Source: a virus. From it: a DNA stretch of 36,942 nt. A program made the translations under genes and the position numbers. The notes beneath the pieces were generated by a model. The model ran no database searches. It was not told the origin of the DNA and was given only the letters and a program-made list of their open reading frames with translations. The stretch lies in IMG/VR virus record IMGVR_UViG_3300032265_001954, positions 1 to 36,942 of that record, one strand, 5' to 3'. Below, one piece after another: positions 1,896 to 33,247 of the stretch (position 1 is its first letter; each line of letters begins with the position of its first letter).

Positions 1896-1970
1896 TAGGG
1901 CAACCGACACCAAGGTAAGTTTAACACAGGTGGTTGTGGTGGTGGCGATAGTGGTGGTGGCACCGAATAA
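1896..1970 (+). pseudogene. Remnant of a Gly-rich tail fibre C-terminus
   Basis: Between two genes, the frame ending at the TAA of 1968-1970 reads TGGCGGGDSGGGTE after a stop at 1896-1898. There is no start codon and too little length for a gene. The Gly/Cys/Ser composition and terminal GGGT resemble the ends of the fibre proteins in this window. It is best read as the leftover 3' end of a displaced fibre gene; a chance GGT-rich stretch is the alternative. Confidence 0.4.
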
Positions 1971-2000
1971 TTTGCTTTTCCAATCTAACTGTGTTACACT

Positions 2001-2025
2001 TATATACTATGATAATTAGTATATA
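2001..2025 (+). promoter_or_regulatory. Perfect 9-bp inverted repeat running into a start codon
   Basis: TATATACTA, a 7-base spacer, then TAGTATATA, which is its exact reverse complement. The second arm ends on the A of the ATG at 2025. No Shine-Dalgarno is visible for this gene. It could be an operator, a promoter element (TATACT is -10-like) or an mRNA hairpin that hides the start. A shorter palindrome GTGTTACAC lies just upstream at 1991-1999. Confidence 0.45.
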
Positions 2026-4046
2026 TGCTCGGCTTCCCTACAGTAGACACAGAATTAGTTAAAGAAATAGAATGGACAGGTGATTCTGCCGCCTATGATA
2101 TTGCGCTGAAAGCCCTTTCGGACGAAGATTGGTTCTTTGTGCTAAACCCCTGGGCCACTGATAAAGACATACATCATCATATTGAAGATATACCAGATGT
2201 TGATAATGCGGTTGTTTGGGTGCATGATGGCGAATGGATAGCCAAACTATTTCACTGCAATTGGAAACCGGCAGACGGTTTTAAAGAAGTTATACTCGAT
2301 CGTCCTAGTTTTATTTGGCGTAAGAATCCAGATCTAGACAGGACCATGACCTTCATTGACGATCCGTTCGCCAAGTATCAGCCCGACCCCTGGGAAAGCA
2401 AACGAGAGCTGGTCTGGTTCATAGATTCAAGATTCAATCCACTAGAAGATCGAGTGTGGGCTATTAAATGCATACCGGCAGGAGTCCCTATCAAAGGCCT
2501 TAAGGAAATGGGAGAACTTACTCCTGATGTTAATATCGTCTACAATCCGGAACTACCCCAGTTGGATATCGACATTGATGATCTGTGTCCGCCATACTAT
2601 GATCTAGCCAACGAAAATGCCTACAAGCTAGATCCTGTACATAGTCCATTTGAGGATATGTGGGTGCTAAAGTTTATTCCTGCCTACAGAAAACCTAAGC
2701 CATTGATTTGGATAGGCACCATAACTCCTACTGTGAAAGTAAAAAAGAATAAAGAGCTTCCGGGATTAGAATACGATTTAGCCTATGACATTCCTGCTAG
2801 TGATCTAGATTACGAACATGTGTGGATGCTAGATGAAAAGCATACAAAGAATGCTGTAGAACCTATCTGGGCAGTTAAGATGTCTGCGGTTAAAAAACCC
2901 AAAGGTACAAAAATAGTAGGGTCGGTAAGTCCTAAGTTGAATATAGAGTTTAATCCAGAGTGTAAAGGTATGTTCTTCAAGCCTATTGACTACGAGATAC
3001 AACACCATGATTTTGAATTTAACCATGTATGGATGTTGCCCGAAGATTATTGCGGACAATGGCATACCTGGGCTGTTAAGATATCAGTTACCAAATTTGT
3101 CAAAGGCGATAAGTTTATAGGCGAAGTAGTTCCCGAGAGCGAGACTGTATACAATCCCGACCTAGCGCATCTTAAGTTGAATGTGTTTTACGAAATACCC
3201 TATTACGATAAAGACTTCGTACATGTATGGTATCTAGACTATAAGGCCGCGGGTAATGAAATGATCTGGGCCGCTAAGATGATAGCAGGTTCAGAAGCCT
3301 CGGGTGAAAAGGTCATGGGCTATGTTGTTCCGCAGTTAACAGATCAAATCGATATTGTGTTCATCAGTTACAAAGAGGCCAATGCCGAAGAGAACTGGGC
3401 AAGAGTATTAGAAAAAGCGCCGTGGGCCAAGCGTGTTAAGAATGTTACAGGTATATTTGAAGCACACAAGAAGGCTGCGGAACTAGCCACAACAGATGTA
3501 TTCTATGTTGTCGATGGAGATGCTTACCTAGACGACAAATGGAAGTTTGATTACAATCCAGATTTATTTGAAAGAGATTGCACATTCATCTGGCATAGTC
3601 GTAATCCATTAACAGGTACGCATTATGGATATGGCGGAGTAAAACTTTTTCCTAGAAAGAGACTGCTCGAAGCAGACTCCTGGAATACATTAGACTTGTC
3701 TACAAGTACCTGTCCTAATATCAAAGTCATTAATAAAATCAGCAACACAACAGCCTTTAACACAGACGAAATGAGTGTGTGGCGTAGTGCATTTAGAGAG
3801 TGTGTTAAACTTTGCCATAACATGCAAGAAGAACCTAAGAACAAACAGCACAGTCAACGGTTACAAAAATGGCTAACTATTGATCCTGCACTGGAATTTG
3901 GCGAGTGTGCAGTAGATGGGGCAACCAATGCCGTGACATTTTACAATATGTTCAAGCATCTGCCAAAGAAGCTACAGGCCATTAATGATCGCAAATGGTT
4001 AGAAAAGAGATTTAAAGATTTTTACAAGCCTAAACAAGGGAAATAA
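2025..4046 (+). CDS. Modular repeat protein with C-terminal glycosyltransferase-like domain
   Basis: A 673-residue protein. Residues about 125-440 contain degenerate modules of roughly 65-80 residues. Each has an aromatic core such as HVW.L (residues 265, 334, 400; variants near 129 and 211), then (I/T)WA.K, then G.K..G...P and often YNP(E/D)L. The C-terminal third (about 443-673) begins IDIVFISYKEANAEENW and contains VVDGDAYLDD at 496-504. This is a DxD-like motif of the kind that binds a divalent metal and nucleotide sugar in GT-A glycosyltransferases. It heads the accessory locus and its stop overlaps the first radical SAM gene (TAATG). The repeat region is not recognised. I infer that it is a binding or scaffold region feeding the catalytic domain. 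Confidence 0.55.
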   Translation: MLGFPTVDTELVKEIEWTGDSAAYDIALKALSDEDWFFVLNPWATDKDIHHHIEDIPDVDNAVVWVHDGEWIAKLFHCNWKPADGFKEVILDRPSFIWRKNPDLDRTMTFIDDPFAKYQPDPWESKRELVWFIDSRFNPLEDRVWAIKCIPAGVPIKGLKEMGELTPDVNIVYNPELPQLDIDIDDLCPPYYDLANENAYKLDPVHSPFEDMWVLKFIPAYRKPKPLIWIGTITPTVKVKKNKELPGLEYDLAYDIPASDLDYEHVWMLDEKHTKNAVEPIWAVKMSAVKKPKGTKIVGSVSPKLNIEFNPECKGMFFKPIDYEIQHHDFEFNHVWMLPEDYCGQWHTWAVKISVTKFVKGDKFIGEVVPESETVYNPDLAHLKLNVFYEIPYYDKDFVHVWYLDYKAAGNEMIWAAKMIAGSEASGEKVMGYVVPQLTDQIDIVFISYKEANAEENWARVLEKAPWAKRVKNVTGIFEAHKKAAELATTDVFYVVDGDAYLDDKWKFDYNPDLFERDCTFIWHSRNPLTGTHYGYGGVKLFPRKRLLEADSWNTLDLSTSTCPNIKVINKISNTTAFNTDEMSVWRSAFRECVKLCHNMQEEPKNKQHSQRLQKWLTIDPALEFGECAVDGATNAVTFYNMFKHLPKKLQAINDRKWLEKRFKDFYKPKQGK

Positions 4047-5440
4047 TGACAACCAAAGAACAAAGTCGGATAAACAAAGTTATCCCTATAATGAATAAAA
4101 TTAGCCCTACATTCTGCTTGGCTAAATGGCATCATGTGACCCTATATTTGCAAACAGGCGAAACGCACAGTTGCTATCATCCGGCACCTCACAAGATTGA
4201 TCTAAAAGAAATAAGATATAACCCTAGTGCTCTACATAATACCATGCATAAGAAATTAGAGCGCAAAGAAATGTTAGATGGTGTGCAGACTAAAGGATGT
4301 AAGTACTGCTGGAACATTGAAAACATGGGTCCGGATTATATCAGCGATAGACATATTCGTACTGCCAGCATCTACACAGAAGAGCGTATGAAGCAAGCCG
4401 CTAAAGGTCTATGGATACAGGATATTGATCCTGAGTATGTGGAAATATCATTTGGCAATGAATGTAATTTCAAGTGCGGCTATTGTCATCCTAAAGCCAG
4501 TAGTCGTTTCTATAATGAAATCAAAGAACACGGTCCTGTGACATCAGTTCAGAATCACCGCTGTGACATTGATTGGCTAAAGATATACGAGCGTGAAGAA
4601 GAGAATCCCTATGTGGATGCTTGGTGGAAATGGTGGCCTACAATGCGTAAGAGTCTTAACATTCTACGCATCACAGGAGGTGAGCCATTAATGCATACCA
4701 GCACATGGAAGTTGTTAAAGAGTCTCAAAGATGATCCAATGCCTAAGTTGGAATTAAACATTAATAGCAATCTAGGAGTCAAGCCTGCTCTAGTAGACAA
4801 ACTGATTACAGAAGTTAATGATATTGTCGCAGTCAACGGAATGAGCAGATTTAAATTGTTTACTAGCATGGATACATGGGGGCCGCAAGCTGAGTACATT
4901 CGAACAGGTTTAGATTTAGATATATGGGAACGCAATATGGATGCGTTTCTAACACAAACAGGACAGCCGCTGAGTTTTATGATTACCTTTAATATTCTTA
5001 GCGTGGTAAAGTTCAAAGACCTGTTGGTTAAGATATTAGACATGCGTAGAAAATACAGTCAATATAACAAGACTACACATCTAAAGAATGTGTGGTTTGA
5101 TACTCCTTATCTAAAGGAACCACTACAGTATGATATCAACATTCTGCCTAAAGCAGAGTTTATGCCCTATATGCATGATGCTTTGAAGTTTATGAAAGAT
5201 AATGTTGAAGATAATGATCCTCACAAGTTTACCACAGTCGAGTATGAAAAGTTTCGTCGTGTGGTAGACTATATGCAGATAACAGAATATCCAGAAGAGC
5301 AAATACAACAAGGCCGTAAAGACTTTTATAATTGGTTTAATGAGTTAGACAGCCGCCGTGGAACAAACTTCTTAGAAGTATTCCCAGAGATGACCGCATT
5401 TTACAATATGTGCGAGGAAGCCAATGATTCAAGCGAATAA
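4046..5440 (+). CDS. Radical SAM protein with N-terminal twitch-like Cys domain (paralogue 1, divergent)
   Basis: A 464-residue protein. The radical SAM motif is CNFKCGYC (Cys 140, 144, 147), with ITGGEPL at 209-215 as the SAM-binding GGEP motif. Ahead of it lies an auxiliary-cluster-like domain with Cys 24, 43, 85 and 88 (FCLAKW, SCYHP, CKYCW). The usual order places such SPASM/twitch domains after the radical SAM core; this matches the family described as twitch-domain radical SAM proteins. It is the most divergent of five neighbouring paralogues: it lacks the PCC pair and carries a long insert between the two Cys regions. The C-terminal FLEVFPEMT echoes the TFPELA tail of the others. Its substrate is unknown. 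The start overlaps the upstream stop and has AAGGG as ribosome binding site. Confidence 0.85.
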   Translation: MTTKEQSRINKVIPIMNKISPTFCLAKWHHVTLYLQTGETHSCYHPAPHKIDLKEIRYNPSALHNTMHKKLERKEMLDGVQTKGCKYCWNIENMGPDYISDRHIRTASIYTEERMKQAAKGLWIQDIDPEYVEISFGNECNFKCGYCHPKASSRFYNEIKEHGPVTSVQNHRCDIDWLKIYEREEENPYVDAWWKWWPTMRKSLNILRITGGEPLMHTSTWKLLKSLKDDPMPKLELNINSNLGVKPALVDKLITEVNDIVAVNGMSRFKLFTSMDTWGPQAEYIRTGLDLDIWERNMDAFLTQTGQPLSFMITFNILSVVKFKDLLVKILDMRRKYSQYNKTTHLKNVWFDTPYLKEPLQYDINILPKAEFMPYMHDALKFMKDNVEDNDPHKFTTVEYEKFRRVVDYMQITEYPEEQIQQGRKDFYNWFNELDSRRGTNFLEVFPEMTAFYNMCEEANDSSE

Positions 5441-6671
5441 AGAAGCACTGCTGAAAAACAGTGATACATTCTGCATCTTTCCTTGGTTGCATTTTATGGT
5501 AACCCCTCCCGGTGATGTATATCCTTGCTGTGCGTCTGTATCTGCACCTGCACTAGGACAAATAGATTCTGAATCTACATTTGACACACTGGTTAATAAC
5601 GATAATTTTAAACAGTTAAGAAAAGATATGATAGATGGTATCAAAAATGAAACCTGTCAGCTTTGCTACGATTTTGAAAGATATGGCCACAGCTGGAGGC
5701 ACTGGGGTAATGAAAACTTCGGACATAGGATCGATGAAGTTATCAACAATACTGAGGAAGATGGTACAGTTAATAACTTTAAGATGCGTTACTACGATAT
5801 ACGATTTAACAATATCTGCAATTTTAAATGTCGTACCTGCGGCCCCGATTATAGTACATTGTGGGCACAGGAAGAAGGACTCAAAGATAAAATTTATAAT
5901 CTAACTAAGACAACTAAAGTACTAGATGAATTTCTATCACATATTGATGATGTTGAGTTTGTATACTTTGCCGGCGGCGAGCCTATGATCACCGAGGATC
6001 ATTACATTATACTAGAAGAACTGATCCGCAAAGGCAAAACAGATATTAAACTGAGATACAACACTAACTGTAGTGTATTGAATTATAAAGATAAAAGTGT
6101 TTTGGATCTTTGGAAAAATTTCAAACATATCGAAGTAGGTGCAAGTATTGATCATATTAAAGATCGAGCAGAGTATATCCGTCATGGTACTGACTGGGGA
6201 GTTATTGAAACTAATCTTAAAAAGTTTCAGCAATTAGATAATGTAGAACTGATGGTTAATACTGTCCTTAGTGTTTTCAATTATGTTACATTGGCCGATG
6301 TATACGGATACCTAATTAAGAATAATATTCTTAAAACAGATAGTTGGCATTTTAGTTTAATTACGACTCCTACTCCTGCTTACTTCGCGGCTACTACTCT
6401 GCCAACAGAATTCAAGGACCTTGGTAGATTGAACAATACCAATCTAGTCAATCAAATGTCCGGTCTGGGGTACACATCTCAGCTGAACCTAATAAACTCT
6501 GCCATTCAATTTACCGATTCTGTTGATAATTGGGATCAGCACGGCCCGGAATTTATACAACAGATTCTGAGGAAAGACGATGCTCGAGGAGAATCGTTTA
6601 AAAAGACATTTCCAGAATTGGCCTCCATGTTAGATTGGAAATCAAAGACCATATGGATAAAAACTTCTTGA
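5424..6671 (+). CDS. Radical SAM protein with N-terminal twitch-like Cys domain (paralogue 2)
   Basis: 415 residues. The N-terminal twitch-like pattern is FCIFPW (Cys17), YPCC (Cys35, 36), then C..CY (Cys78, 81). The radical SAM CX3CX2C motif is Cys132, 136, 139 inside DIRFNNICNFKCRTCG, followed by YFAGGEPM. The C-terminus carries FKKTFPELA, shared with paralogues 3 and 4. The ATG at 5424 lies inside the end of the previous gene and has a GAGGAAG ribosome binding site, so translation is coupled. The family uses SAM and a [4Fe-4S] cluster to make a 5'-deoxyadenosyl radical, and the Cys-rich domain probably holds an auxiliary cluster. The substrate cannot be told from the sequence. Confidence 0.88.
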   Translation: MIQANKEALLKNSDTFCIFPWLHFMVTPPGDVYPCCASVSAPALGQIDSESTFDTLVNNDNFKQLRKDMIDGIKNETCQLCYDFERYGHSWRHWGNENFGHRIDEVINNTEEDGTVNNFKMRYYDIRFNNICNFKCRTCGPDYSTLWAQEEGLKDKIYNLTKTTKVLDEFLSHIDDVEFVYFAGGEPMITEDHYIILEELIRKGKTDIKLRYNTNCSVLNYKDKSVLDLWKNFKHIEVGASIDHIKDRAEYIRHGTDWGVIETNLKKFQQLDNVELMVNTVLSVFNYVTLADVYGYLIKNNILKTDSWHFSLITTPTPAYFAATTLPTEFKDLGRLNNTNLVNQMSGLGYTSQLNLINSAIQFTDSVDNWDQHGPEFIQQILRKDDARGESFKKTFPELASMLDWKSKTIWIKTS

Positions 6672-7873
6672 TATCAGAGAATAAAACATTCTGCATGTAT
6701 CCTTGGATACACATGCATACAACCCCTACAGGCGATGCTAAACCTTGTTGTATTTCCAATTCACAATTAAAAATTGGTAATTCTAATGTTAATTCTCTGT
6801 CAGAACTGGTTAACTCCCCAGAAATGAACAAGATAAGATTGGATATGTTAGCGGGTAATAAAATTCCTTCATGCGAGGGATGTTATTATCATGAAAGTCA
6901 TAAAATGCCTAGTGGTAGAACTCAGGCAAATCAAAACTATTTAAAATATTATAATGATGTTGTTCCTTTAACAAATACAGATGGGTCGTTAACAGAATTT
7001 AAAATGAGGCATTTTGATATTCGATTTAGTAATATTTGTAATATGAAATGCCGTACCTGCACCGAGGAATACAGCAGTCAATGGCAGTTAGAAAATAAAA
7101 AATTTAGAAAATCTTTTATTATTCAATCCAAAGGTAATAAAGATTTTCTACAAGAAGTATTAGATCAAATACCTAATATAAAGACAGCATATTTTGCAGG
7201 CGGTGAAACATTGATAACTGAAGAACATTATATAATGCTGGAAGAAATGCTACGCCGGGGCAGGGCTGATATCAAATTACGCTATAATACAAATTTAAGT
7301 ACTTTAAAATATAAAGATAAAGATCTCTTAAAACTATGGAGTAAGTTTATCTGGCATATTGACATAGATGCCAGTATTGATCATTATGGTAAACGAGCTG
7401 AATATATTCGAAATGGTACAGTCTGGGCAGAAATTGAAGAGAATTTTAAAAAGCTACAGGCTATACCTAAAATTAAATTAGGTGTCAATACTGTCTTGAG
7501 TATTTTCAATGTGCTAACACTTGATGAATTTTATCAATACCTGTTCGATAACGGAATGTATAGATCAGGACATTTTACATTTGGGATTTATAAGATGACC
7601 AGTCCTGAGTATTTGACTGCCCTTGTATTGCCTAATAAGTATAAAGAAGATGCAATACACAGAATTAAAATATTGGTAAGTAATCTTCGCGAGAAGGGAT
7701 TTGGCGCACCTATGATACGAGAGATACATCCTATTACTTCATGGATTAAGAGCGAAGATCATTGGGAATCTCAAAAAGATTTATTCAAACAAGAGATTTT
7801 AAGATTAGATACTATACGAAACGAAAACTTCGCTAACACATTTCCGGAGCTGGCAGAATTGCTAGATTTATAA
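6653..7873 (+). CDS. Radical SAM protein with N-terminal twitch-like Cys domain (paralogue 3)
   Basis: I chose ATG 6653 over the in-frame TTG at 6635 because it gives an N-terminus (MDKNFLISENK) like that of the next paralogue (MDKDKNSLIKESK). This makes 406 residues. Twitch-like Cys are 14, 32, 33, 74 and 77. The radical SAM Cys are 129, 133 and 136 in RFSNICNMKCRTC. The GGEP motif reads GGETL, losing the usual Pro. It ends with FANTFPELAELL. It overlaps the previous gene by 19 bases and touches the next (TAATG). Base composition is more AT-rich than paralogue 4, so the duplication is not recent. Confidence 0.87.
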   Translation: MDKNFLISENKTFCMYPWIHMHTTPTGDAKPCCISNSQLKIGNSNVNSLSELVNSPEMNKIRLDMLAGNKIPSCEGCYYHESHKMPSGRTQANQNYLKYYNDVVPLTNTDGSLTEFKMRHFDIRFSNICNMKCRTCTEEYSSQWQLENKKFRKSFIIQSKGNKDFLQEVLDQIPNIKTAYFAGGETLITEEHYIMLEEMLRRGRADIKLRYNTNLSTLKYKDKDLLKLWSKFIWHIDIDASIDHYGKRAEYIRNGTVWAEIEENFKKLQAIPKIKLGVNTVLSIFNVLTLDEFYQYLFDNGMYRSGHFTFGIYKMTSPEYLTALVLPNKYKEDAIHRIKILVSNLREKGFGAPMIREIHPITSWIKSEDHWESQKDLFKQEILRLDTIRNENFANTFPELAELLDL

Positions 7874-9099
7874 TGGATAAAGATAAAAACTCACTGATAA
7901 AAGAAAGCAAAGTATTTTGCATGTTTCCTTGGATGCACTTAAATGTAACACCCAAAGGTGATATCTATCCCTGTTGTAGTAACAACTATTCAGAACCGTT
8001 TGGTAATACCAAAACAATTTCATTGAAAGAAGCATTTAACAATGACAAGATGAAACAGTTGCGACTTAATATGTTAAACGATGTAAAAAGTGATATCTGC
8101 GACTTTTGCTACAAACATGAAGAAGCAGGTCCTTTTAGTTTTCGTACTTATAGTCTTGAACACTTTGGACAACGATTCGATGAAGTGGTTCCTACCACAC
8201 AGGAAGATGGTACTGTAGAGGATTTCAAAATGCGATACTTTGATATCCGTTTCAGTAATATCTGTAACTTCAAATGCCGTACCTGCGGTGCAGAGTTCAG
8301 CAGCCAGTGGGGTGCCGAAATGAACAAGAACCATGATAAGAATCATCCTATCGTTATACATGCAGATGACGGTAAAGGGGATCTACTCAAAGAAGTCCTT
8401 ACTCATGTTGAACACATTGATTTGGCTTATTTTGCGGGCGGCGAACCGTTGATTACTGAAGAACATTATGTTATACTTGAAGAAATGATTCGTAGGGGTA
8501 GGACAGATGTAACACTACGATACAATACTAACGCAAGTAATATCAAGTACAAAGGCCATGATATATTAGATCTTTGGAAACACTTCAAGAAAGTAGAATT
8601 AAGCTGTAGTGTTGATCATTATGGCGAGAAAGCAGAGTTCTTGAGACACGGAACTGATTGGGGACAGGTAGAAAGTAATCTATTGACATTCAGGGCTGTT
8701 CCTTATATCAGTTTCCAAATCAATACAGTTTTTAGTATTTTTAACTATTTGACTATTGGAGAATTTTACAACTATCTAATAGAAAAGAATATTGTTAGAT
8801 CCGGTGATTGGTACCACAGTTTATATTTGGCAGTACATCCTAGTTACTATTGTGCTAAGAGTCTACCGTTACATTTGAAGCAGGTAGCCAAAGCTAAAGC
8901 AGAAGCATTTTGTAATAGTAGAAAGACAACACATCAGGTTTTAACAAGACTCGTAACAGATGCAATTAATTTTGCAGATAATGACCATACATGGAAAGAC
9001 AACAAAGATACATTCTTCCTACATACAAATTCTATAGACAGAATCCGTAGCGAAGACTTTATACGAACATTTCCCGAATTGGCAGATTTAAAAATTTAA
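7873..9099 (+). CDS. Radical SAM protein with N-terminal twitch-like Cys domain (paralogue 4)
   Basis: 408 residues. Twitch-like Cys are 16, 34, 35, 76 and 79 (FCMFPW, YPCC, CDFCY). The radical SAM Cys are 131, 135 and 138 in DIRFSNICNFKCRTCG, with YFAGGEPL intact. The C-terminus FIRTFPELADL repeats the family tail. The start codon overlaps the previous stop by one base. It is closest in pattern to paralogues 2 and 3, and the trio probably arose by tandem duplication. Separate substrates or positions on one substrate would explain retention of several copies (inference). Confidence 0.88.
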   Translation: MDKDKNSLIKESKVFCMFPWMHLNVTPKGDIYPCCSNNYSEPFGNTKTISLKEAFNNDKMKQLRLNMLNDVKSDICDFCYKHEEAGPFSFRTYSLEHFGQRFDEVVPTTQEDGTVEDFKMRYFDIRFSNICNFKCRTCGAEFSSQWGAEMNKNHDKNHPIVIHADDGKGDLLKEVLTHVEHIDLAYFAGGEPLITEEHYVILEEMIRRGRTDVTLRYNTNASNIKYKGHDILDLWKHFKKVELSCSVDHYGEKAEFLRHGTDWGQVESNLLTFRAVPYISFQINTVFSIFNYLTIGEFYNYLIEKNIVRSGDWYHSLYLAVHPSYYCAKSLPLHLKQVAKAKAEAFCNSRKTTHQVLTRLVTDAINFADNDHTWKDNKDTFFLHTNSIDRIRSEDFIRTFPELADLKI

Positions 9100-9108
9100 C
9101 GGATACAT

Positions 9109-10377
9109 ATGAAAGAATCAACTAAACTAATTCAAAAAGGCAAGCATTTTTGTGTCCTGCCCTGGATACATTTCCATGCCTGGCCCGACGGTAAAGTCAT
9201 GCCCTGCTGTGTCGCAGATAGTAACATGCCCGTGAGTCAAATTAAACCAGAAGAATCGATTCTGGAAATGATGAACAGTGAACAATACAAAAAAATGCGT
9301 GTCGACATGCTAAACGACAAGCCATCTAAAGAGTGCAAGAGATGCTACGATCTAGAGCAAATTGGTACATGGACCATGCGTCAGAGCCATAACATGCGCA
9401 GAGGTATGCAGTATAGGGATCTTATCGAAGCCACTAATCCGGATGGTAGTATTGACGAGTTTAAGATGAAGTACATGGATATTCGTTTCAGCAATGTCTG
9501 TAATATGAAATGTCGTAGTTGCGGTCCTAGCTGTAGCAGTCTTTGGGCAGAGGAGATTGTCAAGAACCATGGAGAAGAACATTACCAAAAGTATTTCCAT
9601 ACTAAGAAAATCGTTATCAATAATAACGAAGACCAAAAGTTTATGGCCAAGCTAACTCCTTATCTAAAGGATGTAGAAGAAGTATACTTTGCTGGCGGCG
9701 AAATTATTATTACTCCCGAACACTACGAATGTCTTGACTATTGGGTAAAGAACAATTTAACTGATCAAGTTGAATTAACCTATACCACTAACTTTAGCGT
9801 ACTCAAATACAAAAACAAAGATTTGATTAACTACTGGAAGAAGTTTCCTAAACTAAAGATATGGGCTAGTCTGGATGCCGAAGGCGATCTCGCTGAGATG
9901 ATGCGTAAAGGCACAGATTGGAAAAAGATTCTAAAGAATCTAAAGCGGGTAAAAGAACTTGTTCCACATGCAGAGTTTCAGATCACCCCAACTATCAGTA
10001 TTTGGAATGTGTTCCAATTTCCTAAGTTCTTTGACATGCTAGTCGAAAGTGGGTATGTTGATATTGAAGGTGGCGGCGCTTATAATGTGCCTCGCTTCAA
10101 CCTGGCGACACATCCTTGGTATGCTAACATTATGATTCTACCAGAAGGTACAAAGCAACATCTCAAAGAACTATATCAGGCCTATTCGGAGAAGTACGAT
10201 AAAGGATCCTTCAATGGATTTAAAATGGTACACTACAATTTAGAAATAGGTGGAGAGAACAAAGGCGGAATCCTTGAATTTGAAAAGTTCAACGACGAAT
10301 TAGATAAATTTAGAAAAGAAAATCACCGAGCAATTATCCCCGAAATCAACGAGGTCTACAAATGGGCAAAAACTTAA
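9109..10377 (+). CDS. Radical SAM protein with N-terminal twitch-like Cys domain (paralogue 5)
   Basis: 422 residues. Twitch-like Cys are 15, 33, 34, 76 and 79 (FCVLPW, MPCC, CKRCY). The radical SAM Cys are 131, 135 and 138 in DIRFSNVCNMKCRSCG. An extra Cys142 follows in GPSCSSLWAEE. The GGEP motif is replaced by GGEII. The C-terminus (INEVYKWAKT) lacks the TFPELA tail, so this copy has diverged at that end. A nine-base gap with a weak GGA site separates it from paralogue 4, and it overlaps the following gene by 16 bases. Confidence 0.87.
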   Translation: MKESTKLIQKGKHFCVLPWIHFHAWPDGKVMPCCVADSNMPVSQIKPEESILEMMNSEQYKKMRVDMLNDKPSKECKRCYDLEQIGTWTMRQSHNMRRGMQYRDLIEATNPDGSIDEFKMKYMDIRFSNVCNMKCRSCGPSCSSLWAEEIVKNHGEEHYQKYFHTKKIVINNNEDQKFMAKLTPYLKDVEEVYFAGGEIIITPEHYECLDYWVKNNLTDQVELTYTTNFSVLKYKNKDLINYWKKFPKLKIWASLDAEGDLAEMMRKGTDWKKILKNLKRVKELVPHAEFQITPTISIWNVFQFPKFFDMLVESGYVDIEGGGAYNVPRFNLATHPWYANIMILPEGTKQHLKELYQAYSEKYDKGSFNGFKMVHYNLEIGGENKGGILEFEKFNDELDKFRKENHRAIIPEINEVYKWAKT

Positions 10378-11336
10378 TATCAATCGAAGTACCAGATCCC
10401 TATCTGGCGGTAACCTGGCAGGTTAATAACTACTGTAACTTTAAATGTAGTTACTGTAATCCGGGTAACTATAGCGGCACCAATGCTAACAATGGAAATC
10501 TAGATCTCTATATCAAGAATCTAGAATCGATTATTACAAAATATCGAGCTATTGATTACAAGAATTTTAAGTTCTTTTTTAGTGGCGGTGAGCCCACAGC
10601 ATGGCGTAACTTTATTCCAATCTGTGAATGGCTTAAGAATGAAGTACCCAACTGTACTCTTGCAGTTAATACTAACTTGAGTCGCCCATTAAACTGGTGG
10701 AAGAAATACTATCATCTGTTTGATGATATCGTTGCTAGTTTTCATATCGAGTTTGCCGACAAAGACAAGTATAAAGAGAACAGCATCTTTTTATGCGATA
10801 AGGTCAACTACCTATCAACTAAAATGTTGATGCACGAAGAACGCTTCTGGGAAATTGTTGAGTATGCGGAAGATCTCAAAGATGTAATGCCCAATTACTT
10901 TATTGAGTGGACTCCTTTATTCGACGAGATGAGTGTACATGCCAAGCCTTGGGAATATACAGATCCCAAGATGAAGCGTTTCATTAAATCTCATAATGTT
11001 GAAATGAATTATACAATTCCAAAGCCCTACAAGGATACTACCTGTGCCAGTTGGAGTAGATTTGACGACGGCACATTCATTCCGACTAACAGCAACGAAG
11101 TTATCGTTAACAGCCAAAACTTCTTTAAGGGCTGGCAATGTAAAGTAGGAGATGCTCTGTTTATTAATCCTGTAGGCGATATGAGCTTTGCCAGCTGTGG
11201 TCAAGGTGGCTATGTAGGTAATATTTTGCGAGATGTAAGTAGAGTAGGTCCTAAAGAAATTACCTGCTATAAAGATCATTGTCATTGCGGTACTGATATT
11301 ATAATTCCAAAATACATTCCTATAAATAAGGTATGA
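10362..11336 (+). CDS. Radical SAM protein with C-terminal SPASM/twitch-like Cys region
   Basis: 324 residues. The radical SAM CX3CX2C motif lies near the N-terminus (Cys25, 29, 32 in NNYCNFKCSYCNPG), with FFSGGEPTAW as the SAM-binding motif. The C-terminal 60 residues hold several Cys in the order WQCKVGD, FASCGQGGYVGN, then TCYKDHCHCGTD, the usual position and spacing style for a SPASM/twitch auxiliary cluster domain. It therefore has the conventional order, in contrast to the five preceding genes. The start has a GAGGT site inside the upstream gene. Such enzymes often modify peptides or carry out dehydrogenations or epimerisations; the substrate here is unknown. Confidence 0.85.
   Translation: MGKNLISIEVPDPYLAVTWQVNNYCNFKCSYCNPGNYSGTNANNGNLDLYIKNLESIITKYRAIDYKNFKFFFSGGEPTAWRNFIPICEWLKNEVPNCTLAVNTNLSRPLNWWKKYYHLFDDIVASFHIEFADKDKYKENSIFLCDKVNYLSTKMLMHEERFWEIVEYAEDLKDVMPNYFIEWTPLFDEMSVHAKPWEYTDPKMKRFIKSHNVEMNYTIPKPYKDTTCASWSRFDDGTFIPTNSNEVIVNSQNFFKGWQCKVGDALFINPVGDMSFASCGQGGYVGNILRDVSRVGPKEITCYKDHCHCGTDIIIPKYIPINKV
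11321..11328 (+). promoter_or_regulatory. TATAAATA late-promoter-like box just before an ATG
   Basis: A perfect match to the T4 late promoter core lies four bases (AGGT) before the ATG at 11333, inside the last codons of the upstream gene. If used, transcription would begin at about the start codon. It may be coincidental, since the same bases encode the C-terminus PINKV and AAGG could serve as a ribosome site. Confidence 0.3.
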
Positions 11337-12625
11337 ACCCCATTAAAATAGTATATAATTGGATAGGGCCTAATGGCCCTATCCCTAATACAGAAACTCC
11401 GAATCTGTTGAATCTAGCAGGTGTCATGTCCGATGTACAGGTACGATCTACCAAGTTCTGGGCCGACGATATTTGGCATAAAATCTTTATTAAGAATCCT
11501 GAACATTTTCAACTGTCGCCGGCATTTCCTATAAATGCAGATGATGTCTTTATCTATCCAATGTATGTGAGCTGGAGGATAGACTTTGAAAAGTACTTTT
11601 TAAAAGATAACGGGATTTTAGAGTTTGGTCATGTGCCAACCCATATTATACATCATGTTAGAACGCACAAGGGCTATTTCTTAATTGAGATGGCGGCAGA
11701 AGCCTATGTGAGATGGAACCATTTAAATGCGTTACATACATATTTTATCCATAATCAAATTCCTCTAAATAAAATTATATACCTAACGGGATGCATGAAT
11801 CCAGACGATGTATACTACAATATTGCACCTCTTGATGCAGAAAAAATAAATCTTATCACATTTCCAGTTTCACAAGCATCCCTTGCTTCACACCTAACTT
11901 CTGTTCCCCCTCCCGAGGAACCAGCCTATCCTGTCGATTTTATACCAGAAAAGAAATTTCTAATGTGGAATCGTAGATATCGTCGTCATCGATATGCTTT
12001 GGCTTTGATGATGGAACAACTTGGGTTAACTGAAAAGAATTATATCAGTATGCCGCTAGTGTCAGATGAGAATTCAGAAAAGTTTCTTGACAAGATAGAT
12101 TTTGAATTTCTAAGGCATATAGGCATAGGTGCCGATACAGTCGCAAACTTTGTGGCTAAATTACCATTGGTGCTAGATGGTGAAACTGATATACAAAAAA
12201 TGTGCAGTGATTTTGATAATGCCACAAGGCCATTTTATCAGAACAGTCTAGTAAGTATTATTACAGAAACTAACTTTGACGATAATGAACTTACATTAAC
12301 TGAAAAATCATTCAAGCCGATGAAGGAAAAACATCCCTTTATCATTGTAGGTGTGCCAAATGCATTGAAATCGTTAAAGAGTTTAGGATATAAAACATTC
12401 AGTGATTTTTGGAGTGAGGACTACGATAGCATTGCTGATCATTGGGATAGAGCCAAAGAGATCATGCGTGTCTGTAATGAAATTGCTCAGTGGGACGATA
12501 ACAAAATACGAGACTTTAGAGTAAAAGTCAAAGATATATTAGATTACAATTATAATAATCTAAAAGTAGATGGAGCGCATTTTGCTTATCAAGAAGTTCT
12601 TAAAATTATAAGAGGCAATCAATGA
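11333..12625 (+). CDS. Putative glycosyltransferase, TEK-motif family (member 1)
   Basis: 430 residues with no signal peptide or membrane segment. Residues 208-230 read KFLMWNRRYRRHRYALALMM, a basic helix. Residues 304-340 read SLVSIITET, then LTEKSFKPM, then HPFIIVG. The TEK..KP....PF...G string resembles the acceptor/donor-site TEK motif of GT10 fucosyltransferases, where TEKLWNAL...PV..G is typical. Three further genes in this locus share the R.HR and TEK parts. Its stop overlaps the epimerase start (ATGA). The position between radical SAM genes and a GDP-sugar epimerase supports a sugar-transfer role, but the fold is unproven. Confidence 0.5.
   Translation: MNPIKIVYNWIGPNGPIPNTETPNLLNLAGVMSDVQVRSTKFWADDIWHKIFIKNPEHFQLSPAFPINADDVFIYPMYVSWRIDFEKYFLKDNGILEFGHVPTHIIHHVRTHKGYFLIEMAAEAYVRWNHLNALHTYFIHNQIPLNKIIYLTGCMNPDDVYYNIAPLDAEKINLITFPVSQASLASHLTSVPPPEEPAYPVDFIPEKKFLMWNRRYRRHRYALALMMEQLGLTEKNYISMPLVSDENSEKFLDKIDFEFLRHIGIGADTVANFVAKLPLVLDGETDIQKMCSDFDNATRPFYQNSLVSIITETNFDDNELTLTEKSFKPMKEKHPFIIVGVPNALKSLKSLGYKTFSDFWSEDYDSIADHWDRAKEIMRVCNEIAQWDDNKIRDFRVKVKDILDYNYNNLKVDGAHFAYQEVLKIIRGNQ
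11361..11384 (+). promoter_or_regulatory. Strong perfect hairpin near the 5' end of a coding region
   Basis: GGATAGGGCC, loop TAAT, then GGCCCTATCC, a perfect 10-bp stem, 28 bases after the ATG of the 11333 gene. It has no trailing U-tract, so it is not a standard terminator. It could attenuate, stabilise or pause the transcript. It also encodes GPNGPIP, so codon choice rather than protein need may have made the palindrome. Confidence 0.5.
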
Positions 12626-13569
12626 GTAGAATATTAGTATGCGGTGGTGGTGGTTTTATAGGAACACATCTTGTCAACAGTCTAAAGTCTCAGGGACATT
12701 ATGTAGTAGCAGTAGATCTACACAAACCATTATATAGCGAGACTACGGCTGACAAGTTCTATGTAGAGGATCTAAGAAATCCACTTGTTGTAGATAATAT
12801 AATGCAAGATGATTTTGATGAAGTATATCAACTTGCGGCCGATATGGGAGGAGCAGGATATATATTCACTGGCGAACATGATGCAGATATTATGCACAAT
12901 TCTGCCATGATTAACCTTAATGTATTAGATTCGATGAGAAAGTACGGAGTGAAAAAAGTACTCTATACCTCTAGTGCCTGTGTCTACCCAGAACGCAATC
13001 AACTAGATCCTGACAATCCAAATTGTGAAGAAACCAGTGCTTACCCTGCCGCACCTGATAGCGAGTACGGCTGGGAAAAACTATTCAGCGAACGCCTGTA
13101 TATGAGTTATCGTCGTAACTATGGAATAGAGTGTCGTATCGTTAGATTCCATAATGTCTTTGGTCCTTTAGGCTCTTGGAATAACGGAAAAGAAAAAGCT
13201 CCGGCAGCTCTGTGTCGTAAGGTATTGATGGGCAATGAAATTGAAGTATGGGGTGACGGTAACCAAACTCGCAGTTTTCTTTATATCAAAGATGCTATAG
13301 AAGGCCTACATAGAGTCATGGATAGCGATTTTCCTTATCCAATTAATCTTGGAAGTGATCGAATGATTTCCATAAACAATTTAGTTTTGTTGATTGCCAA
13401 GTTAGTAAACAAAGAGGTTACAATCAAACACATTGTAGGACCAAGAGGTGTTATGGGCCGCAATAGTGACAACACTCTTATCAAACAACGAATTGGTTGG
13501 GCTCCACCTGATAGTCTAGAGCAAGGATTAATAGAGACCTACCAATGGATACAAACACAGATAAAGTAA
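12622..13569 (+). CDS. gme: GDP-mannose 3,5-epimerase-like SDR
   Basis: A 315-residue short-chain dehydrogenase/reductase-fold epimerase. GGGGFIGTHL near residue 8 is the NAD-binding Rossmann motif. Features matching plant-type GDP-mannose 3,5-epimerase include LAADMGGAGYI, SSACVYPE (containing the catalytic Cys), YGWEKL (the Tyr-x-x-x-Lys pair), CRIVRFHNVFGP, NGKEKAPAALCRK (a catalytic Lys), GDGNQTRSF, NLGSD and GPRGVMGRNSDN. The enzyme converts GDP-D-mannose to GDP-L-galactose or GDP-L-gulose. The close motif match makes this one of the clearest metabolic calls here. It would supply an unusual GDP-hexose to the neighbouring transferases (inference). ATGA overlap upstream; 25-base overlap downstream. 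Confidence 0.85.
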   Translation: MSRILVCGGGGFIGTHLVNSLKSQGHYVVAVDLHKPLYSETTADKFYVEDLRNPLVVDNIMQDDFDEVYQLAADMGGAGYIFTGEHDADIMHNSAMINLNVLDSMRKYGVKKVLYTSSACVYPERNQLDPDNPNCEETSAYPAAPDSEYGWEKLFSERLYMSYRRNYGIECRIVRFHNVFGPLGSWNNGKEKAPAALCRKVLMGNEIEVWGDGNQTRSFLYIKDAIEGLHRVMDSDFPYPINLGSDRMISINNLVLLIAKLVNKEVTIKHIVGPRGVMGRNSDNTLIKQRIGWAPPDSLEQGLIETYQWIQTQIK

Positions 13570-14609
13570 TTTCCGCATATTTCCTCTATTGTCATTCAGG
13601 ACATTCTGACGGATGGCAAACTGAAGCAGAAGAAATTAAAACGCTAAACCCGGACAAGATTGTCTGCTGGTGTTCTCAAGAAATAGAGTACTGGAATATA
13701 TTCAGTAGTTTCTTCGAGACTATGTCTAACTGGTTGGAACAAAATAACAAGATAATCAATCTTATCACACCCCACCTTGACGGGGTATATGTTCGTTCTA
13801 GGGTGTATGCCGAAAAGACAACAGGTTACATAACAGATTTTGTATATTACTACTACCTGAATAATATAGAAAAGGCAAATCAGGCATATCCTAGACCAGC
13901 TAATTCATTCGACGATCGTTTTCATACACTATATACCTGTTATATTAATACGCCCCAGTATCATAGACAATTAATGATAGACAGTTTAGCTAGAGATAAT
14001 CTGTTGCAGTATGGTATTGCAACATATAGATACCCTGAAGCTTCTGTATGGAAATATCATAACGGCTCCAGATTAATGGACGAGCCTGATTTTGAATTAC
14101 ATAACGGAATACACTCCCCTAATCAGTTTCCCGAAAGTTTCCATAAAGGGCTGTTTGACATAGTATGTGAAAGTAGATATAGCCAGGGTGAATTCTTTGT
14201 TACTGAAAAGACTTTAAAAAGTATTATGTTGTTTAAGCCCTTTATACCATTAAGCTGTCAGGGTTACCAAAAATATCTAGAAGACGAGTTCGGACTATTA
14301 CCATATACAGAAATATTTGATTATACATATGATCAATATAATTCAATACCAGGTAGAGTAGATGGAATTATAGATAATGTCAAACGTCTTAACTCTCTTA
14401 ATATAAATGAGAGAGTGTCCTTATATAATAGGCTAATACCTAAACTGGTCTATAATAAAAATAGAATTATTGAAACATTTTTTAACAAGAATAAAATATT
14501 TCCAGAATCATTAAAGTTCTTAATTGATGGAACTAAATTTAAATTGCAGGGGTGTCCTTGGATACCTGCAATAACCTACGGAAAAGAAATGGGTTGGATA
14601 TATGAATAA
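13545..14609 (+). CDS. Putative glycosyltransferase, TEK-motif family (member 2)
   Basis: 354 residues. A QYHRQLMIDSLARDNLL stretch in the middle corresponds to the R.HR..L helix of the other members. Near residue 210-235 it has FDIVCESRYSQGEFFVTEKTLKSIMLFKPFIPL, the family TEK motif with the PF turn. A final segment with GYQKYLEDEFG and R.D.II.NV...NSL follows, as in the siblings. It starts inside the epimerase gene and ends overlapping an SGNH-like gene. The activity is inferred only from the TEK similarity to GT10-like enzymes and from context. Confidence 0.45.
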   Translation: MDTNTDKVISAYFLYCHSGHSDGWQTEAEEIKTLNPDKIVCWCSQEIEYWNIFSSFFETMSNWLEQNNKIINLITPHLDGVYVRSRVYAEKTTGYITDFVYYYYLNNIEKANQAYPRPANSFDDRFHTLYTCYINTPQYHRQLMIDSLARDNLLQYGIATYRYPEASVWKYHNGSRLMDEPDFELHNGIHSPNQFPESFHKGLFDIVCESRYSQGEFFVTEKTLKSIMLFKPFIPLSCQGYQKYLEDEFGLLPYTEIFDYTYDQYNSIPGRVDGIIDNVKRLNSLNINERVSLYNRLIPKLVYNKNRIIETFFNKNKIFPESLKFLIDGTKFKLQGCPWIPAITYGKEMGWIYE

Positions 14610-15474
14610 ACATATTATAGGAATAGGGTGTAGTTGGACACAAGGCGAAGGTGCTTACCCAGAACATATATGGAAAGAATGTAATGGACGAGCACAAATA
14701 AGACATAAACCTGACGAAAGTCGCAGAGCCTATGAGCATGAATACAGCTGGGTAAATGTCCTATGTAAAGAGCACTTTGCAGATCATACTCCTATTAATT
14801 TAGGTGTTAGGGGCATCGGTAATCGTGCGGCAGTTAAACAGTTATATTTCTGTGATACAGTGGACTGGGATAATAGTACAGGGTATATTGTGTTAATGCT
14901 CAGCGGGTTTGAAAGGCAAGACTTTTTCAATAAAACTCCGACGGGTGAAAATAACGAAAATCATTACGATGGATATTCATCTATAGGATATAGACATTAT
15001 AAATGGCGTACCATGTGGCCTTTCCCGGATCATGGCGGTGCTGAAGAACCTCTATGGAGAATATATGGGACCATGTTATGGAGTGAACAATTTGTAGCAT
15101 CAGAAACCATGATGGCTCTATTAGAATTACAGGCATTTTGTAAGGCACACAACTATAAAATGATTGTGGCCAATGCTTTCAATCAGCATTTTCCTTTAGG
15201 TAGCGACAATTATCTAAAACAATATACCACAGAGAAACTACATAGTAAGTTCGATTGGTCTAGTTATCTTCATACACAAACTGATTATGTAGCGATGGTA
15301 CAAAAACTTGTACAACTTGACGGGATTATTAAACCAGAAGACTGGGGATCCTTTTATGGTGCATATGAAAAATTAGATTGGCCTGCGACCTACATAACCA
15401 ACGATGTGCATCCTACAATTGAAGGATATAGAGTTATCGCCTCAGAGCTGGCTAAGTTTATGAAAGCTCGTTGA
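14602..15474 (+). CDS. SGNH/GDSL-like hydrolase (copy 1)
   Basis: 290 residues. IIGIGCSWTQGEG at the N-terminus is a block I variant in which GDS is GCS (nucleophile candidate Ser11). NLGVRGIGNRAA supplies the block II Gly. VLMLSGFERQDF sits where block III is expected. NDVHPTIEGYRVIA near the C-terminus gives the Asp-x-His pair. All elements needed for an esterase or acetyltransferase-like active site are therefore present. The family includes carbohydrate esterases that add or remove O-acetyl groups; in this locus an action on sugars is plausible. It has no signal peptide, so it is cytoplasmic. Confidence 0.7.
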   Translation: MNKHIIGIGCSWTQGEGAYPEHIWKECNGRAQIRHKPDESRRAYEHEYSWVNVLCKEHFADHTPINLGVRGIGNRAAVKQLYFCDTVDWDNSTGYIVLMLSGFERQDFFNKTPTGENNENHYDGYSSIGYRHYKWRTMWPFPDHGGAEEPLWRIYGTMLWSEQFVASETMMALLELQAFCKAHNYKMIVANAFNQHFPLGSDNYLKQYTTEKLHSKFDWSSYLHTQTDYVAMVQKLVQLDGIIKPEDWGSFYGAYEKLDWPATYITNDVHPTIEGYRVIASELAKFMKAR

Positions 15475-16484
15475 TGGCAACTACATTTTTTATCAATCAT
15501 GGATTAAGTGATTCTTTGCCTTCAGTTAATGAATTACGAAGTATTCTTATGAATATTATTCAACAAGTTGATAGAAAATTTTCTCATCAAAGAAACTTTG
15601 TTGTTAATACAACATGGATTGATCACTATGCTGGTCAGTTAAAATCTGATTACCAGCAGTTTGGACATATAGATAATCTGTTTTTAATAGCACCATTAGA
15701 TGAAATGATTTCAGATATTCCGTTACCAGAATATGCTTGTAATATAATTAAAATAGGTTCCATAGTTGATGACGACCAGTCTCATAATCATATTAATTTT
15801 TCTTCTATCATTGTAGATAAGATTTTTAAAAAGTATACAGAAGAAGAATTGGTATTATCAGATGATCCTACTCCGTATCTCTGTTATAATAACAAGCCTC
15901 ATAGACATAGACAGCTATTAGTACATGAATTAACTAAGCGAAGTATATTAGATCGCGGCGTAGTTAGTCTCGGTCCGGCAGAAACTTATCTCTACGAAGG
16001 ATTAGTTGAATTATCCGCAGGAGATGATGCTGTGGTATTCCATGGAGATTACCCTTGGTGTAAAGAAGATGCCTATACTTTGGGAGATATGAATATATGG
16101 CGTAATTGTTTTCTTAATGTGGTAAATGAAACAGGTGAATCTAGCAAGTACCATATAACAGAAAAAACTTTTAAACCTATATTAGGACTACGCCCATTTA
16201 TCCTTAACGCACACCCTTATGTAACAGAATATTTAAAGTCAAAAGGTTTTTATACTTTTGATGACTACTGGAATCGCTGGGCAACATTTGACAGGATCAA
16301 CCCACACGACATCGTTCGCAGATGTAATGCGATAACAGATATAATTGAAGGGATATGTAGATTAAGTTCAGTAGAAATAACAGACATGTATCAAGACATG
16401 TTGCCTAGACTATTACATAATAGAAACAGGTTTGCAATACATGCTCGAGAACAACAACAATTTTTGGATACCATATGTACCTAA
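15474..16484 (+). CDS. Putative glycosyltransferase, TEK-motif family (member 3)
   Basis: I start it at ATG 15474 (TGATG overlap with the upstream stop) rather than the TTG one codon earlier, giving 336 residues. It contains NKPHRHRQLLVHELTKRSIL and later FLNVVNETGESSKYHITEKTFKPILGLRPFILNA, then KGFYTFDDYWNRW. These features closely match member 1 (TEKSFKPM, GYKTFSDFW). It shares a ten-base overlap with member 4. Predicted soluble. Identity as a sugar transferase is inferred. Confidence 0.48.
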   Translation: MATTFFINHGLSDSLPSVNELRSILMNIIQQVDRKFSHQRNFVVNTTWIDHYAGQLKSDYQQFGHIDNLFLIAPLDEMISDIPLPEYACNIIKIGSIVDDDQSHNHINFSSIIVDKIFKKYTEEELVLSDDPTPYLCYNNKPHRHRQLLVHELTKRSILDRGVVSLGPAETYLYEGLVELSAGDDAVVFHGDYPWCKEDAYTLGDMNIWRNCFLNVVNETGESSKYHITEKTFKPILGLRPFILNAHPYVTEYLKSKGFYTFDDYWNRWATFDRINPHDIVRRCNAITDIIEGICRLSSVEITDMYQDMLPRLLHNRNRFAIHAREQQQFLDTICT

Positions 16485-32566: not shown

Positions 32567-32950
32567 ATGGCATATTCAGACAAAGTAATCGATCATTATG
32601 AAAATCCTCGCAATGTTGGCAGCTTTGCCAAAGACGAGGAAGGTGTTGGTACAGGCATGGTCGGAGCACCTGCCTGTGGAGATGTAATGAAACTCCAAAT
32701 CAAAGTAGAAGATGGAATTATTAAAGATGCACGATTCAAAACATACGGATGTGGATCAGCAATCGCAAGCTCAAGTCTTGTTACAGAATGGGTCAAAGGA
32801 AAAACGCTTGACCAGGCACGAGAGATATCTAATAGCACAATTGCTGAAGAACTTGCCCTTCCACCGGTTAAAATACATTGTAGCATACTTGCAGAAGATG
32901 CTATCAAAGCCGCAATAGATGATTACCGTAACAAACACAGCCAAACTTAA
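32567..32950 (+). CDS. iscU: IscU-type Fe-S cluster scaffold protein
   Basis: 127 residues, the normal length of IscU. The three cluster ligands are visible: Cys37 in GAPACGD (with Asp39), Cys62 in TYGCGSAIASSS and Cys105 in KIHCSILAEDAI. LPPVK at 98-102 is the HscA/chaperone recognition motif. IscU receives sulfur from a cysteine desulfurase (IscS, not in this window, so presumably from the host) and builds [2Fe-2S]/[4Fe-4S] clusters. It overlaps the IscA gene by 32 bases, forming an operon. All ligands are intact, so it should be functional. Confidence 0.95.
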   Translation: MAYSDKVIDHYENPRNVGSFAKDEEGVGTGMVGAPACGDVMKLQIKVEDGIIKDARFKTYGCGSAIASSSLVTEWVKGKTLDQAREISNSTIAEELALPPVKIHCSILAEDAIKAAIDDYRNKHSQT

Positions 32951-33245: not shown

Positions 33246-33247
33246 TT

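What the first reader, a model, noticed from the sequence alone, without database searches (positions are those of the whole stretch)
2025..4046. Aromatic repeat protein joined to a glycosyltransferase-like domain
Four or five degenerate modules carrying HVW.L, IWA.K and YNP(E/D)L precede a domain with VVDGDAYLDD. I know of no named family with this repeat. It opens the accessory locus and could be its scaffold, substrate carrier or key transferase.
Basis: partly seen in the sequence, partly recalled or inferred. Interest (0 to 1): 0.55.

Follow-up and report, generated by a model that had tools for sequence, protein, structure and literature searches.

The report
Phage glycosyltransferase with tunable repeat array
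An uncultured phage carries a sugar-transferring enzyme whose front half is a row of short repeated modules, from one to seventeen in related phages, and this gene usually stands just before genes for radical SAM enzymes, which points to an undescribed way in which phages build or alter surface sugars.

Summary
ORF 2025-4046 (673 aa) is a ~100-aa cap, five degenerate ~67-aa aromatic modules (aa 128-438) and a C-terminal domain (aa ~438-673). AlphaFold models are confident (pLDDT ~91). The C-terminal domain has a GT-A glycosyltransferase fold; its DxD pair is kept in 74 of 74 non-redundant relatives, and one chromosomal relative passes the Pfam Glycos_transf_2 cut-off. Each module folds as about four strands with no significant match among solved structures. 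No Pfam, NCBIfam or PHROG family matches, nor any of 50,697 phage records.

In IMG/VR the family is common. Modules number 1-17 and change in whole units (7 versus 5 modules with transferase domains 98% identical). A scan seeded by the modules alone found the transferase behind them in 80 of 80 ORFs. Radical SAM enzymes follow, or are fused, in 33 of 35 non-redundant loci of that scan. Module-bearing transferases form essentially one clade among module-less ones, which also occur beside radical SAM genes in Bdellovibrionia MAGs.

Best reading: an active glycosyltransferase that, with N-twitch radical SAM enzymes, makes or decorates a surface glycan; the array probably holds the acceptor or partner enzymes (inferred). 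The modules may derive from the transferase's own fold; support is only suggestive.

The parts
2025..4046 (+). repeat-array glycosyltransferase-like protein, 673 aa
   Evidence: ORF; AlphaFold pLDDT 90.7; no family match
2025..2324 (+). N-terminal cap (aa 1-100), conserved in the family; weak structural resemblance to a truncated GT-A/nucleotidyltransferase core without DxD
   Evidence: alignments A4 and A5; VIA Z 2.3-4.6 over aa 1-94; not supported by sequence profiles
2406..2531 (+). repeat module 1 (aa 128-169, partial HMM match)
2541..2687 (+). repeat module 2 (aa 173-221)
2748..2942 (+). repeat module 3 (aa 242-306)
2949..3137 (+). repeat module 4 (aa 309-371)
3150..3338 (+). repeat module 5 (aa 376-438)
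3336..4043 (+). C-terminal GT-A glycosyltransferase domain (aa 438-673)
   Evidence: HMM; Foldseek/VIA; invariant residues
3513..3521 (+). DxD motif (D497-G-D499)
   Evidence: D497 and D499 in 74 of 74 non-redundant GT domains
4046..5440 (+). N_Twi radical SAM protein (NF033640), start overlaps the repeat-GT stop
   Evidence: NCBIfam 312.5 bits, cut-off 170; TAATG overlap
5424..6671 (+). N_Twi radical SAM protein (SPASM at N terminus)
6635..7873 (+). N_Twi radical SAM protein
7873..9099 (+). N_Twi radical SAM protein
9109..10377 (+). N_Twi radical SAM protein
10362..11336 (+). second-type radical SAM protein (same type as that fused to repeat-GT in L026)
12622..13569 (+). nucleotide-sugar epimerase, part of the presumed sugar-modification locus
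   Evidence: PF01370 5.7e-48, phrog_540

Best explanation
The gene encodes an active, metal-dependent GT-A (GT2-like) glycosyltransferase carrying an N-terminal array of ~67-aa beta modules whose number changes by whole-unit recombination. It opens a phage-borne cassette in which it works with N-terminal-twitch radical SAM enzymes to synthesise or chemically modify a saccharide, most likely on the host envelope or the virion surface. The array is an accessory part, gained essentially once on an older, module-less transferase; it most likely holds the (polymeric) acceptor or the partner enzymes near the active site, so that copy number tunes reach or avidity. Shown: repeat array, GT-A fold by prediction, conserved DxD, unit-wise copy-number change, gene order and fusions, essentially one clade. 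Inferred: catalytic activity, the glycan target, and the role of the array.
For: GT-A fold: Foldseek best hits SunS/ThuS S-glycosyltransferases (E 1.8e-4); VIA Z 11.3 (B4GALNT1, rmsd 2.9, 139 residues) and Z ~10 over 216-228 residues to aa 673 with cellulose and hyaluronan synthases. D497, D499, H481, N527, Y534, G537, R591, E592, K595 and W616 in 74 of 74 non-redundant domains. A Bdellovibrionales relative with two such domains (L090) passes the PF00535 cut-off (29.8 vs 23.3 bits). Modules always precede a GT domain: 78 of 78 in the GT-seeded set and 80 of 80 in a module-seeded scan. Radical SAM enzyme fused or within 2.5 kb downstream in 33 of 35 NR loci; within 2.5 kb downstream in 37 of 47 NR GT-seeded loci. 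Three kinds of repeat-GT-radical SAM fusion ORF (L013, L069, L026). Copy number 1-17 over 56 ORFs with a complete start; 7 vs 5 modules at 98.2% GT identity with a single 131-aa gap, 8 vs 7 at 96.1% with a single 67-aa gap. Repeat-bearing GTs in one supported clade (44 rows, 41 with repeats, support 97/94). The window locus also has an epimerase, a DegT-type aminotransferase and a nucleotidyltransferase-cupin.
Against: No biochemical evidence; the window protein itself matches no GT family in Pfam or NCBIfam. IspD/MobA nucleotidyltransferases score nearly as high in VIA (Z 9.4-10.9). 10 of 47 NR GT-seeded loci have no radical SAM gene within 2.5 kb downstream and none fused. No acceptor identified; nothing shows that the array binds sugar or protein. 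The tree needs 4 label changes for repeat versus no repeat, 2 forced by starred branches.
Confidence: 0.6

Rival explanations
1. The array is a docking scaffold for the downstream radical SAM enzymes (and other GTs), forming a multi-enzyme complex; copy number sets how many partners are held.
For: Gene order repeat-GT then radical SAM; fusions into one chain; several radical SAM genes follow in many loci.
Against: Bdellovibrionia and other MAG loci have GT plus radical SAM without an array. No correlation of copy number with the number of partners was tested.
Confidence: 0.25
2. The array is the substrate: a multi-module protein whose conserved W/H/Y residues are modified by the N-twitch radical SAM enzymes and glycosylated by its own C-terminal domain, like a multi-core RiPP precursor.
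For: Best Foldseek matches are peptide S-glycosyltransferases SunS/ThuS; SPASM radical SAM enzymes often modify peptides (established knowledge); near-identical recent modules in L006 (up to 93% DNA identity); W27 and W41 of the unit invariant in 18 of 18 aligned modules.
Against: Modules are predicted as a confident beta fold, not a flexible peptide; the same GT and radical SAM families co-occur without modules.
Confidence: 0.12
3. The C-terminal domain is a nucleotidyltransferase or a dead GT fold rather than a glycosyltransferase.
For: IspD/MobA-type enzymes reach VIA Z 9.4-10.9.
Against: Foldseek's best hits are GTs; C-terminal helices align with processive GT2 enzymes to aa 673; DxD invariant 74 of 74; L090 passes PF00535.
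Confidence: 0.1
4. A virion structural adhesin or fibre whose modules form the shaft.
For: A tail-fibre-like ORF lies at the far window end; modules are beta repeats; phage islands of this type sit by tail fibres (PMC7029224, passages read).
Against: Conserved GT residues; fusions to radical SAM enzymes.
Confidence: 0.04

Closest known systems
GT2-type GT-A glycosyltransferases (Pfam PF00535; SunS/ThuS; cellulose and hyaluronan synthases)
   Same: Predicted GT-A fold, DxD, C-terminal helices; one relative (L090) over the PF00535 cut-off
   Different: Window protein itself below any GT family threshold; N-terminal variable repeat array; radical SAM partners
N_Twi_rSAM (NCBIfam NF033640) radical SAM proteins
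   Same: Five neighbouring window genes and the C-terminal part of the L013 fusion are members above cut-off
   Different: The finding itself is the GT upstream of or fused to them; no paper naming the accession was found
Radical SAM and glycosyltransferase cassettes in the host recognition cluster of pelagimyophages, and T4-like environmental genomes with IscU and up to 12 radical SAM genes
   Same: Same kind of island: radical SAM plus GT genes (PMC7029224, passages); Fe-S assembly genes with many radical SAM genes (PMC5332604, passages)
   Different: The passages read there do not describe the repeat array, the fusions or the fixed gene order
Uncharacterised proteins A0A6J5L5L5 and A0A6J5LK21 of uncultured Caudovirales phage (BFVD)
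   Same: Structural matches of the cap+repeat part, E 1.1e-9 and 5.1e-4
   Different: Unannotated; sequence not compared here

Membership tests
GT-A fold glycosyltransferase | GT-A (Rossmann-like) fold | tested here: met
   AlphaFold pLDDT 90.7; Foldseek E 1.8e-4 to SunS; VIA Z up to 11.3
GT-A fold glycosyltransferase | DxD metal/nucleotide-sugar motif | tested here: met
   D497 and D499 in 74 of 74 NR domains
GT-A fold glycosyltransferase | sugar-transfer activity | not testable with these tools
   needs biochemistry
Pfam Glycos_transf_2 (PF00535) | window protein over the gathering score | tested here: not met
   no Pfam family at E <= 0.5; only the relative L090, of nine relatives scanned, passes. 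So not filed as a PF00535 member
NF033640 N_Twi_rSAM (neighbours 4046-10377) | score over curated cut-off 170 | tested here: met
   312-377 bits for five window proteins; 352.6 for the L013 fusion
IspD/MobA nucleotidyltransferase | fold similarity | tested here: inconclusive
   VIA Z 9.4-10.9, tied with GTs
IspD/MobA nucleotidyltransferase | Gly-rich Arg-containing loop after strand 1 (motif recalled) | tested here: not met
   by eye: aa 440-459 read DQIDIVFISYKEANAEENWA, no such loop
RiPP precursor / multi-core peptide | unstructured core with cleaved leader | tested here: inconclusive
   modules predicted folded; no leader or protease test made

The most novel reading that the evidence does not exclude
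A glycosyltransferase that multiplied part of its own catalytic fold (the strands after the DxD, where GT-A enzymes contact the acceptor) into a tunable array of acceptor-binding modules, and that, with N-twitch radical SAM enzymes, forms an undescribed phage and bacterial saccharide-modification system.
Probability: 0.25. Interest if true: 0.78.

Novelty: new variant of a known kind. Interest (0 to 1): 0.58.

Why it matters
Radical SAM genes have been reported in marine phage islands without a known job. A recurrent pairing, including single-chain fusions, with a conserved transferase gives them a testable context, and a transferase whose front array changes by whole modules between near-identical phages is an unusual route to fast variation. 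The family is common in IMG/VR yet gave no match in 50,697 phage records, so it belongs to a poorly sampled part of phage biology.

Tried and rejected
Homology of modules or cap with the GT domain: module-pair profile versus GT, P 0.098. Single-module profile versus degenerate GT copies (L085, L086, L102), P 3e-4; 0 of 200 column shuffles reach the real score, and 1 of 200 against each of two larger GT profiles, always in the same register. Cap profile: no support (113, 69 and 69 of 200 shuffles as good). Structural second look: all 33 listed rows are low (Z 2.3-4.6) but are nearly all nucleotidyltransferase/GT-A-type chains or CDP-alcohol phosphotransferases with such a fused domain (that last identity recalled), 31 of 33 on aa 1-94 and 2 on aa 168-237; this list is limited to Foldseek's candidates. 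Kept as suggestive only.

A fold for the modules: no PDB match at E <= 0.001 (best 0.85); a listed absence does not prove a new fold. The UPA match of L006 (5.1e-11) has no stretch passing on its own and is taken as a sum of weak repeats.

Annotated phages: no tblastn match for the whole protein at E 1e-3, the GT domain at E 10 or a relative's whole protein at E 1; a positive control with the neighbouring radical SAM protein gave 8 records. Megablast of 12000-36942: no match. T4-type late promoter TATAAATA: 3 matches, 5.6 expected, uninformative. The first module alignment was poor and not used. A search in viral contigs with six exact peptides of the whole protein found nothing.

Literature: searches turned up no description of the array or of the pairing; only passages of PMC7029224, PMC5332604 and PMC7150976 were read, the rest as search listings; most subscription papers are not held.

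Biases: all 80 loci were found by the GT domain and only the best 80 of 542 confirmed stretches were kept; the module-seeded scan (80 of 92 kept) partly hits the same contigs. Rows dropped: redundancy filters at 90% GT identity, and loci with under 2.5 kb downstream (3 of 50).

Full report
WHAT IS THERE. The window is a 36,942-base virus record, G+C 0.389. ORF 2025-4046 (+) encodes 673 aa. Self-comparison gives its best ungapped 30-residue match at an offset of 67 residues, score 74, against 40 for the best of 60 shuffles. A profile made from the repeats of a relative (L006, 1448 aa, 17 HMM matches) finds five units in the window protein, aa 128-438. The consensus of 114 non-redundant units is roughly YNPDLP.ldydiDy.IPyyDL.YEHVWYLDpkf.p..ekIWA.Ki.......G.KdMGyvsP.

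STRUCTURE. AlphaFold2 with 33 family sequences gives mean pLDDT 90.7 and pTM 0.55 for the whole protein; the cap plus array alone gives 90.8 and 0.65. Each module shows a short turn and about four strands. The moderate pTM means that the arrangement of modules and domains to each other is less sure than each unit. The C-terminal domain (aa ~438-673) has a GT-A fold: the best Foldseek hits are the peptide S-glycosyltransferases SunS and ThuS (E 1.8e-4 and 2.9e-4); VIA gives Z 11.3 to B4GALNT1 (rmsd 2.9, 139 residues) and Z about 10 over 216-228 residues, up to aa 673, to cellulose and hyaluronan synthases; IspD/MobA nucleotidyltransferases are close in Z. In 74 non-redundant domains D497 and D499 (DxD), H481, N527, Y534, G537, R591, E592, K595 and W616 are all invariant. 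The cap+array model has no PDB match at E <= 0.001 and matches two uncharacterised phage proteins in BFVD.

FAMILY STATUS. The window protein has no Pfam match at E <= 0.5, no meaningful PHROG (best E 0.43), no NCBIfam at E <= 0.01, and profiles of the GT domain and of the modules have no PDB sequence match. Of nine relatives scanned, one, a Bdellovibrionales MAG protein with two such domains (L090), passes the PF00535 Glycos_transf_2 cut-off (29.8 vs 23.3 bits), which ties the family to GT2 by sequence.

DISTRIBUTION. In annotated phage records there is no match (positive control). In the collection of 84,980 bacterial and archaeal species genomes, 14 of 92 candidate stretches were confirmed; none of these 14 loci has modules, and 11 of 14 carry radical SAM hits of the same types in the fetched stretch (L095, L096 and L100 do not). 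Several are Bdellovibrionia MAGs on long contigs (to 936 kb); some marine MAG contigs may be phage DNA.

THE ARRAY IS UNIT-WISE VARIABLE. Over 56 ORFs with a complete start, module number ranges from 1 to 17 (10 ORFs with 1, 7 with 2, 11 with 3, 7 with 4, 9 with 5, 3 with 6, 4 with 7, 4 with 8, 1 with 17). L059 (7 modules) and L060 (5) have GT domains 98.2% identical and differ by one 131-aa gap; L052 (8) and L062 (7) are 96.1% identical there and differ by one 67-aa gap; L055 versus L071 shows a 68-aa gap plus small ones. In L006 adjacent modules reach 93% DNA identity, in the window only 53-60%. So the array expands and contracts by whole modules.

THE ARRAY WAS NOT FOUND ALONE. In the GT-seeded set 78 of 78 module-bearing ORFs carry the GT domain, which is expected from the way they were found. 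A separate scan seeded only by the modules (114 stretches, 92 confirmed, 80 kept) gave 80 of 80 ORFs with the GT domain, and in the 77 with their stop inside the locus it lies C-terminal to all modules.

RADICAL SAM PARTNERS. The next window gene starts inside the stop codon (TAATG) and is, like the four after it, an N_Twi radical SAM protein well over the NF033640 cut-off; a sixth, of a second type, follows. In the module-seeded set, 33 of 35 non-redundant loci have a radical SAM enzyme fused (5) or within 2.5 kb downstream. In the GT-seeded set, 37 of 47 non-redundant loci with enough downstream sequence have one within 2.5 kb, 29 within 100 bp; 10 have neither that nor a fusion; none of 35 loci with enough upstream sequence has one within 2.5 kb upstream on the same strand. 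Downstream of the exceptions lie, for example, ATP-PPi-type (SGGxDS) proteins and transport-binding-like proteins (by eye); two of them have a radical SAM-like ORF on the other strand (by eye). Three kinds of single-ORF fusion exist: repeat-GT-N_Twi radical SAM in L013 and L069, and repeat-GT-second-type radical SAM in L026; L048 has a short SPASM-like N terminus before a module and the GT (NF033640 itself was tested only on L013).

EVOLUTION. In a tree of 83 GT domains (41 with, 42 without modules), the 41 module-bearing and 3 module-less rows form one supported clade (97/94) nested among module-less GTs of phages and bacteria; the label needs 4 changes against 28 in shuffles. Of the 3 module-less rows, L041 is cut by its contig end. 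Just outside this clade lie L085 and L086, whose N termini hold a degenerate second GT copy (profile match to the GT family 1.8e-11; hmmsearch 8e-9 and 2.5e-6). Whether the modules descend from such a copy is open: the module profile matches the degenerate copies better than all of 200 column shuffles and the GT profiles better than 199 of 200, in one register (strands after the DxD), but the hhalign probability is only 3-40% and the cap shows no sequence support at all. Structural rows for the cap (aa 1-94) and one module (aa 168-237) are nucleotidyltransferase/GT-A-like but weak (Z 2.3-4.6).

LOCUS. The same window holds a nucleotide-sugar epimerase, a DegT-type aminotransferase, a 2OG-Fe(II) oxygenase, two B12-binding radical SAM proteins, a cytidylyltransferase-cupin fusion and Fe-S assembly genes, and a tail-fibre-like start at its far end. 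This resembles the islands of radical SAM cassettes and glycosyltransferases in the host recognition cluster of pelagimyophages, whose authors propose alteration of the host O-chain (PMC7029224, passages), and T4-like environmental genomes with IscU, A-type carriers and up to 12 radical SAM genes (PMC5332604, passages).

MECHANISM. Most likely the protein transfers a sugar onto a surface glycan or glycolipid of host or virion, with N-twitch radical SAM enzymes altering the same saccharide; the array holds the acceptor or the partners. The predicted fold, the DxD, the array's dynamics and the gene order are shown by computation; activity, substrate and the array's role are inferred. The self-substrate rival is weakened by the confident fold of the modules and by module-less GT plus radical SAM loci in bacteria, but is not excluded.

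VERDICT. Real, and not described in the searches made; a new variant of a known enzyme kind, with an unusual tunable array and a recurrent pairing that makes the role of phage radical SAM islands testable. Interest 0.58.

Noticed in passing
window 32567-33577: Three consecutive Fe-S assembly genes (IscU/NifU_N and two A-type-carrier-like ORFs; the second carrier by sequence likeness only) in a window with eight radical SAM genes; the phage may supply clusters to its own radical SAM enzymes. IscU is 77-78% identical to that of phage C48C1 and Acinetobacter phage MD-2021a.
   Followed up: partly
window 18762-20681 and 21533-23785: Two B12-binding radical SAM proteins, nearest to KedN5-type methyltransferases and RiPP C-methyltransferases, both below curated cut-offs.
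   Followed up: partly
window 13545-14609, 15471-16484, 16475-17476: Proteins sharing a TE(K/N)T-like stretch by eye, possibly one undescribed family; no meaningful Pfam match.
   Followed up: no
window 14602-15474, 20678-21511, 23785-24537, 25292-26119: Four SGNH-hydrolase-like proteins by eye (GCSWT, GCSFT, GCSHA, GDSFA starts); only 23785-24537 matches Pfam (DUF6071). A similar ORF lies in the Bdellovibrionia locus L098.
   Followed up: no
window 26664-27410: Cytidylyltransferase fused to a mannose-6-phosphate isomerase-type cupin.
   Followed up: no
window 1928-1972: Short glycine-rich coding-like remnant (by eye) between the kinase gene and the repeat-GT, similar in style to the glycine-rich ORFs at 2-601 and 28666-29883.
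   Followed up: no
L105 7956-15770: Vibrio phage K566 (255 kb) has four N_Twi-like radical SAM genes with glycosyltransferase-like neighbours (by eye) but neither the array nor this GT in the stretch fetched.
   Followed up: partly
L085 8608-9000, L086 6152-6550, L102: GT proteins with a degenerate second GT copy at their N terminus; L085 and L086 lie just outside the repeat-bearing clade.
   Followed up: partly
L043 10626-11462; L073 and L063 downstream; L082 downstream: Other repeat-GT loci carry a fatty-acid-desaturase-like ORF, SGGxDS ATP-PPi-type proteins and transport-binding-like proteins (by eye).
   Followed up: no
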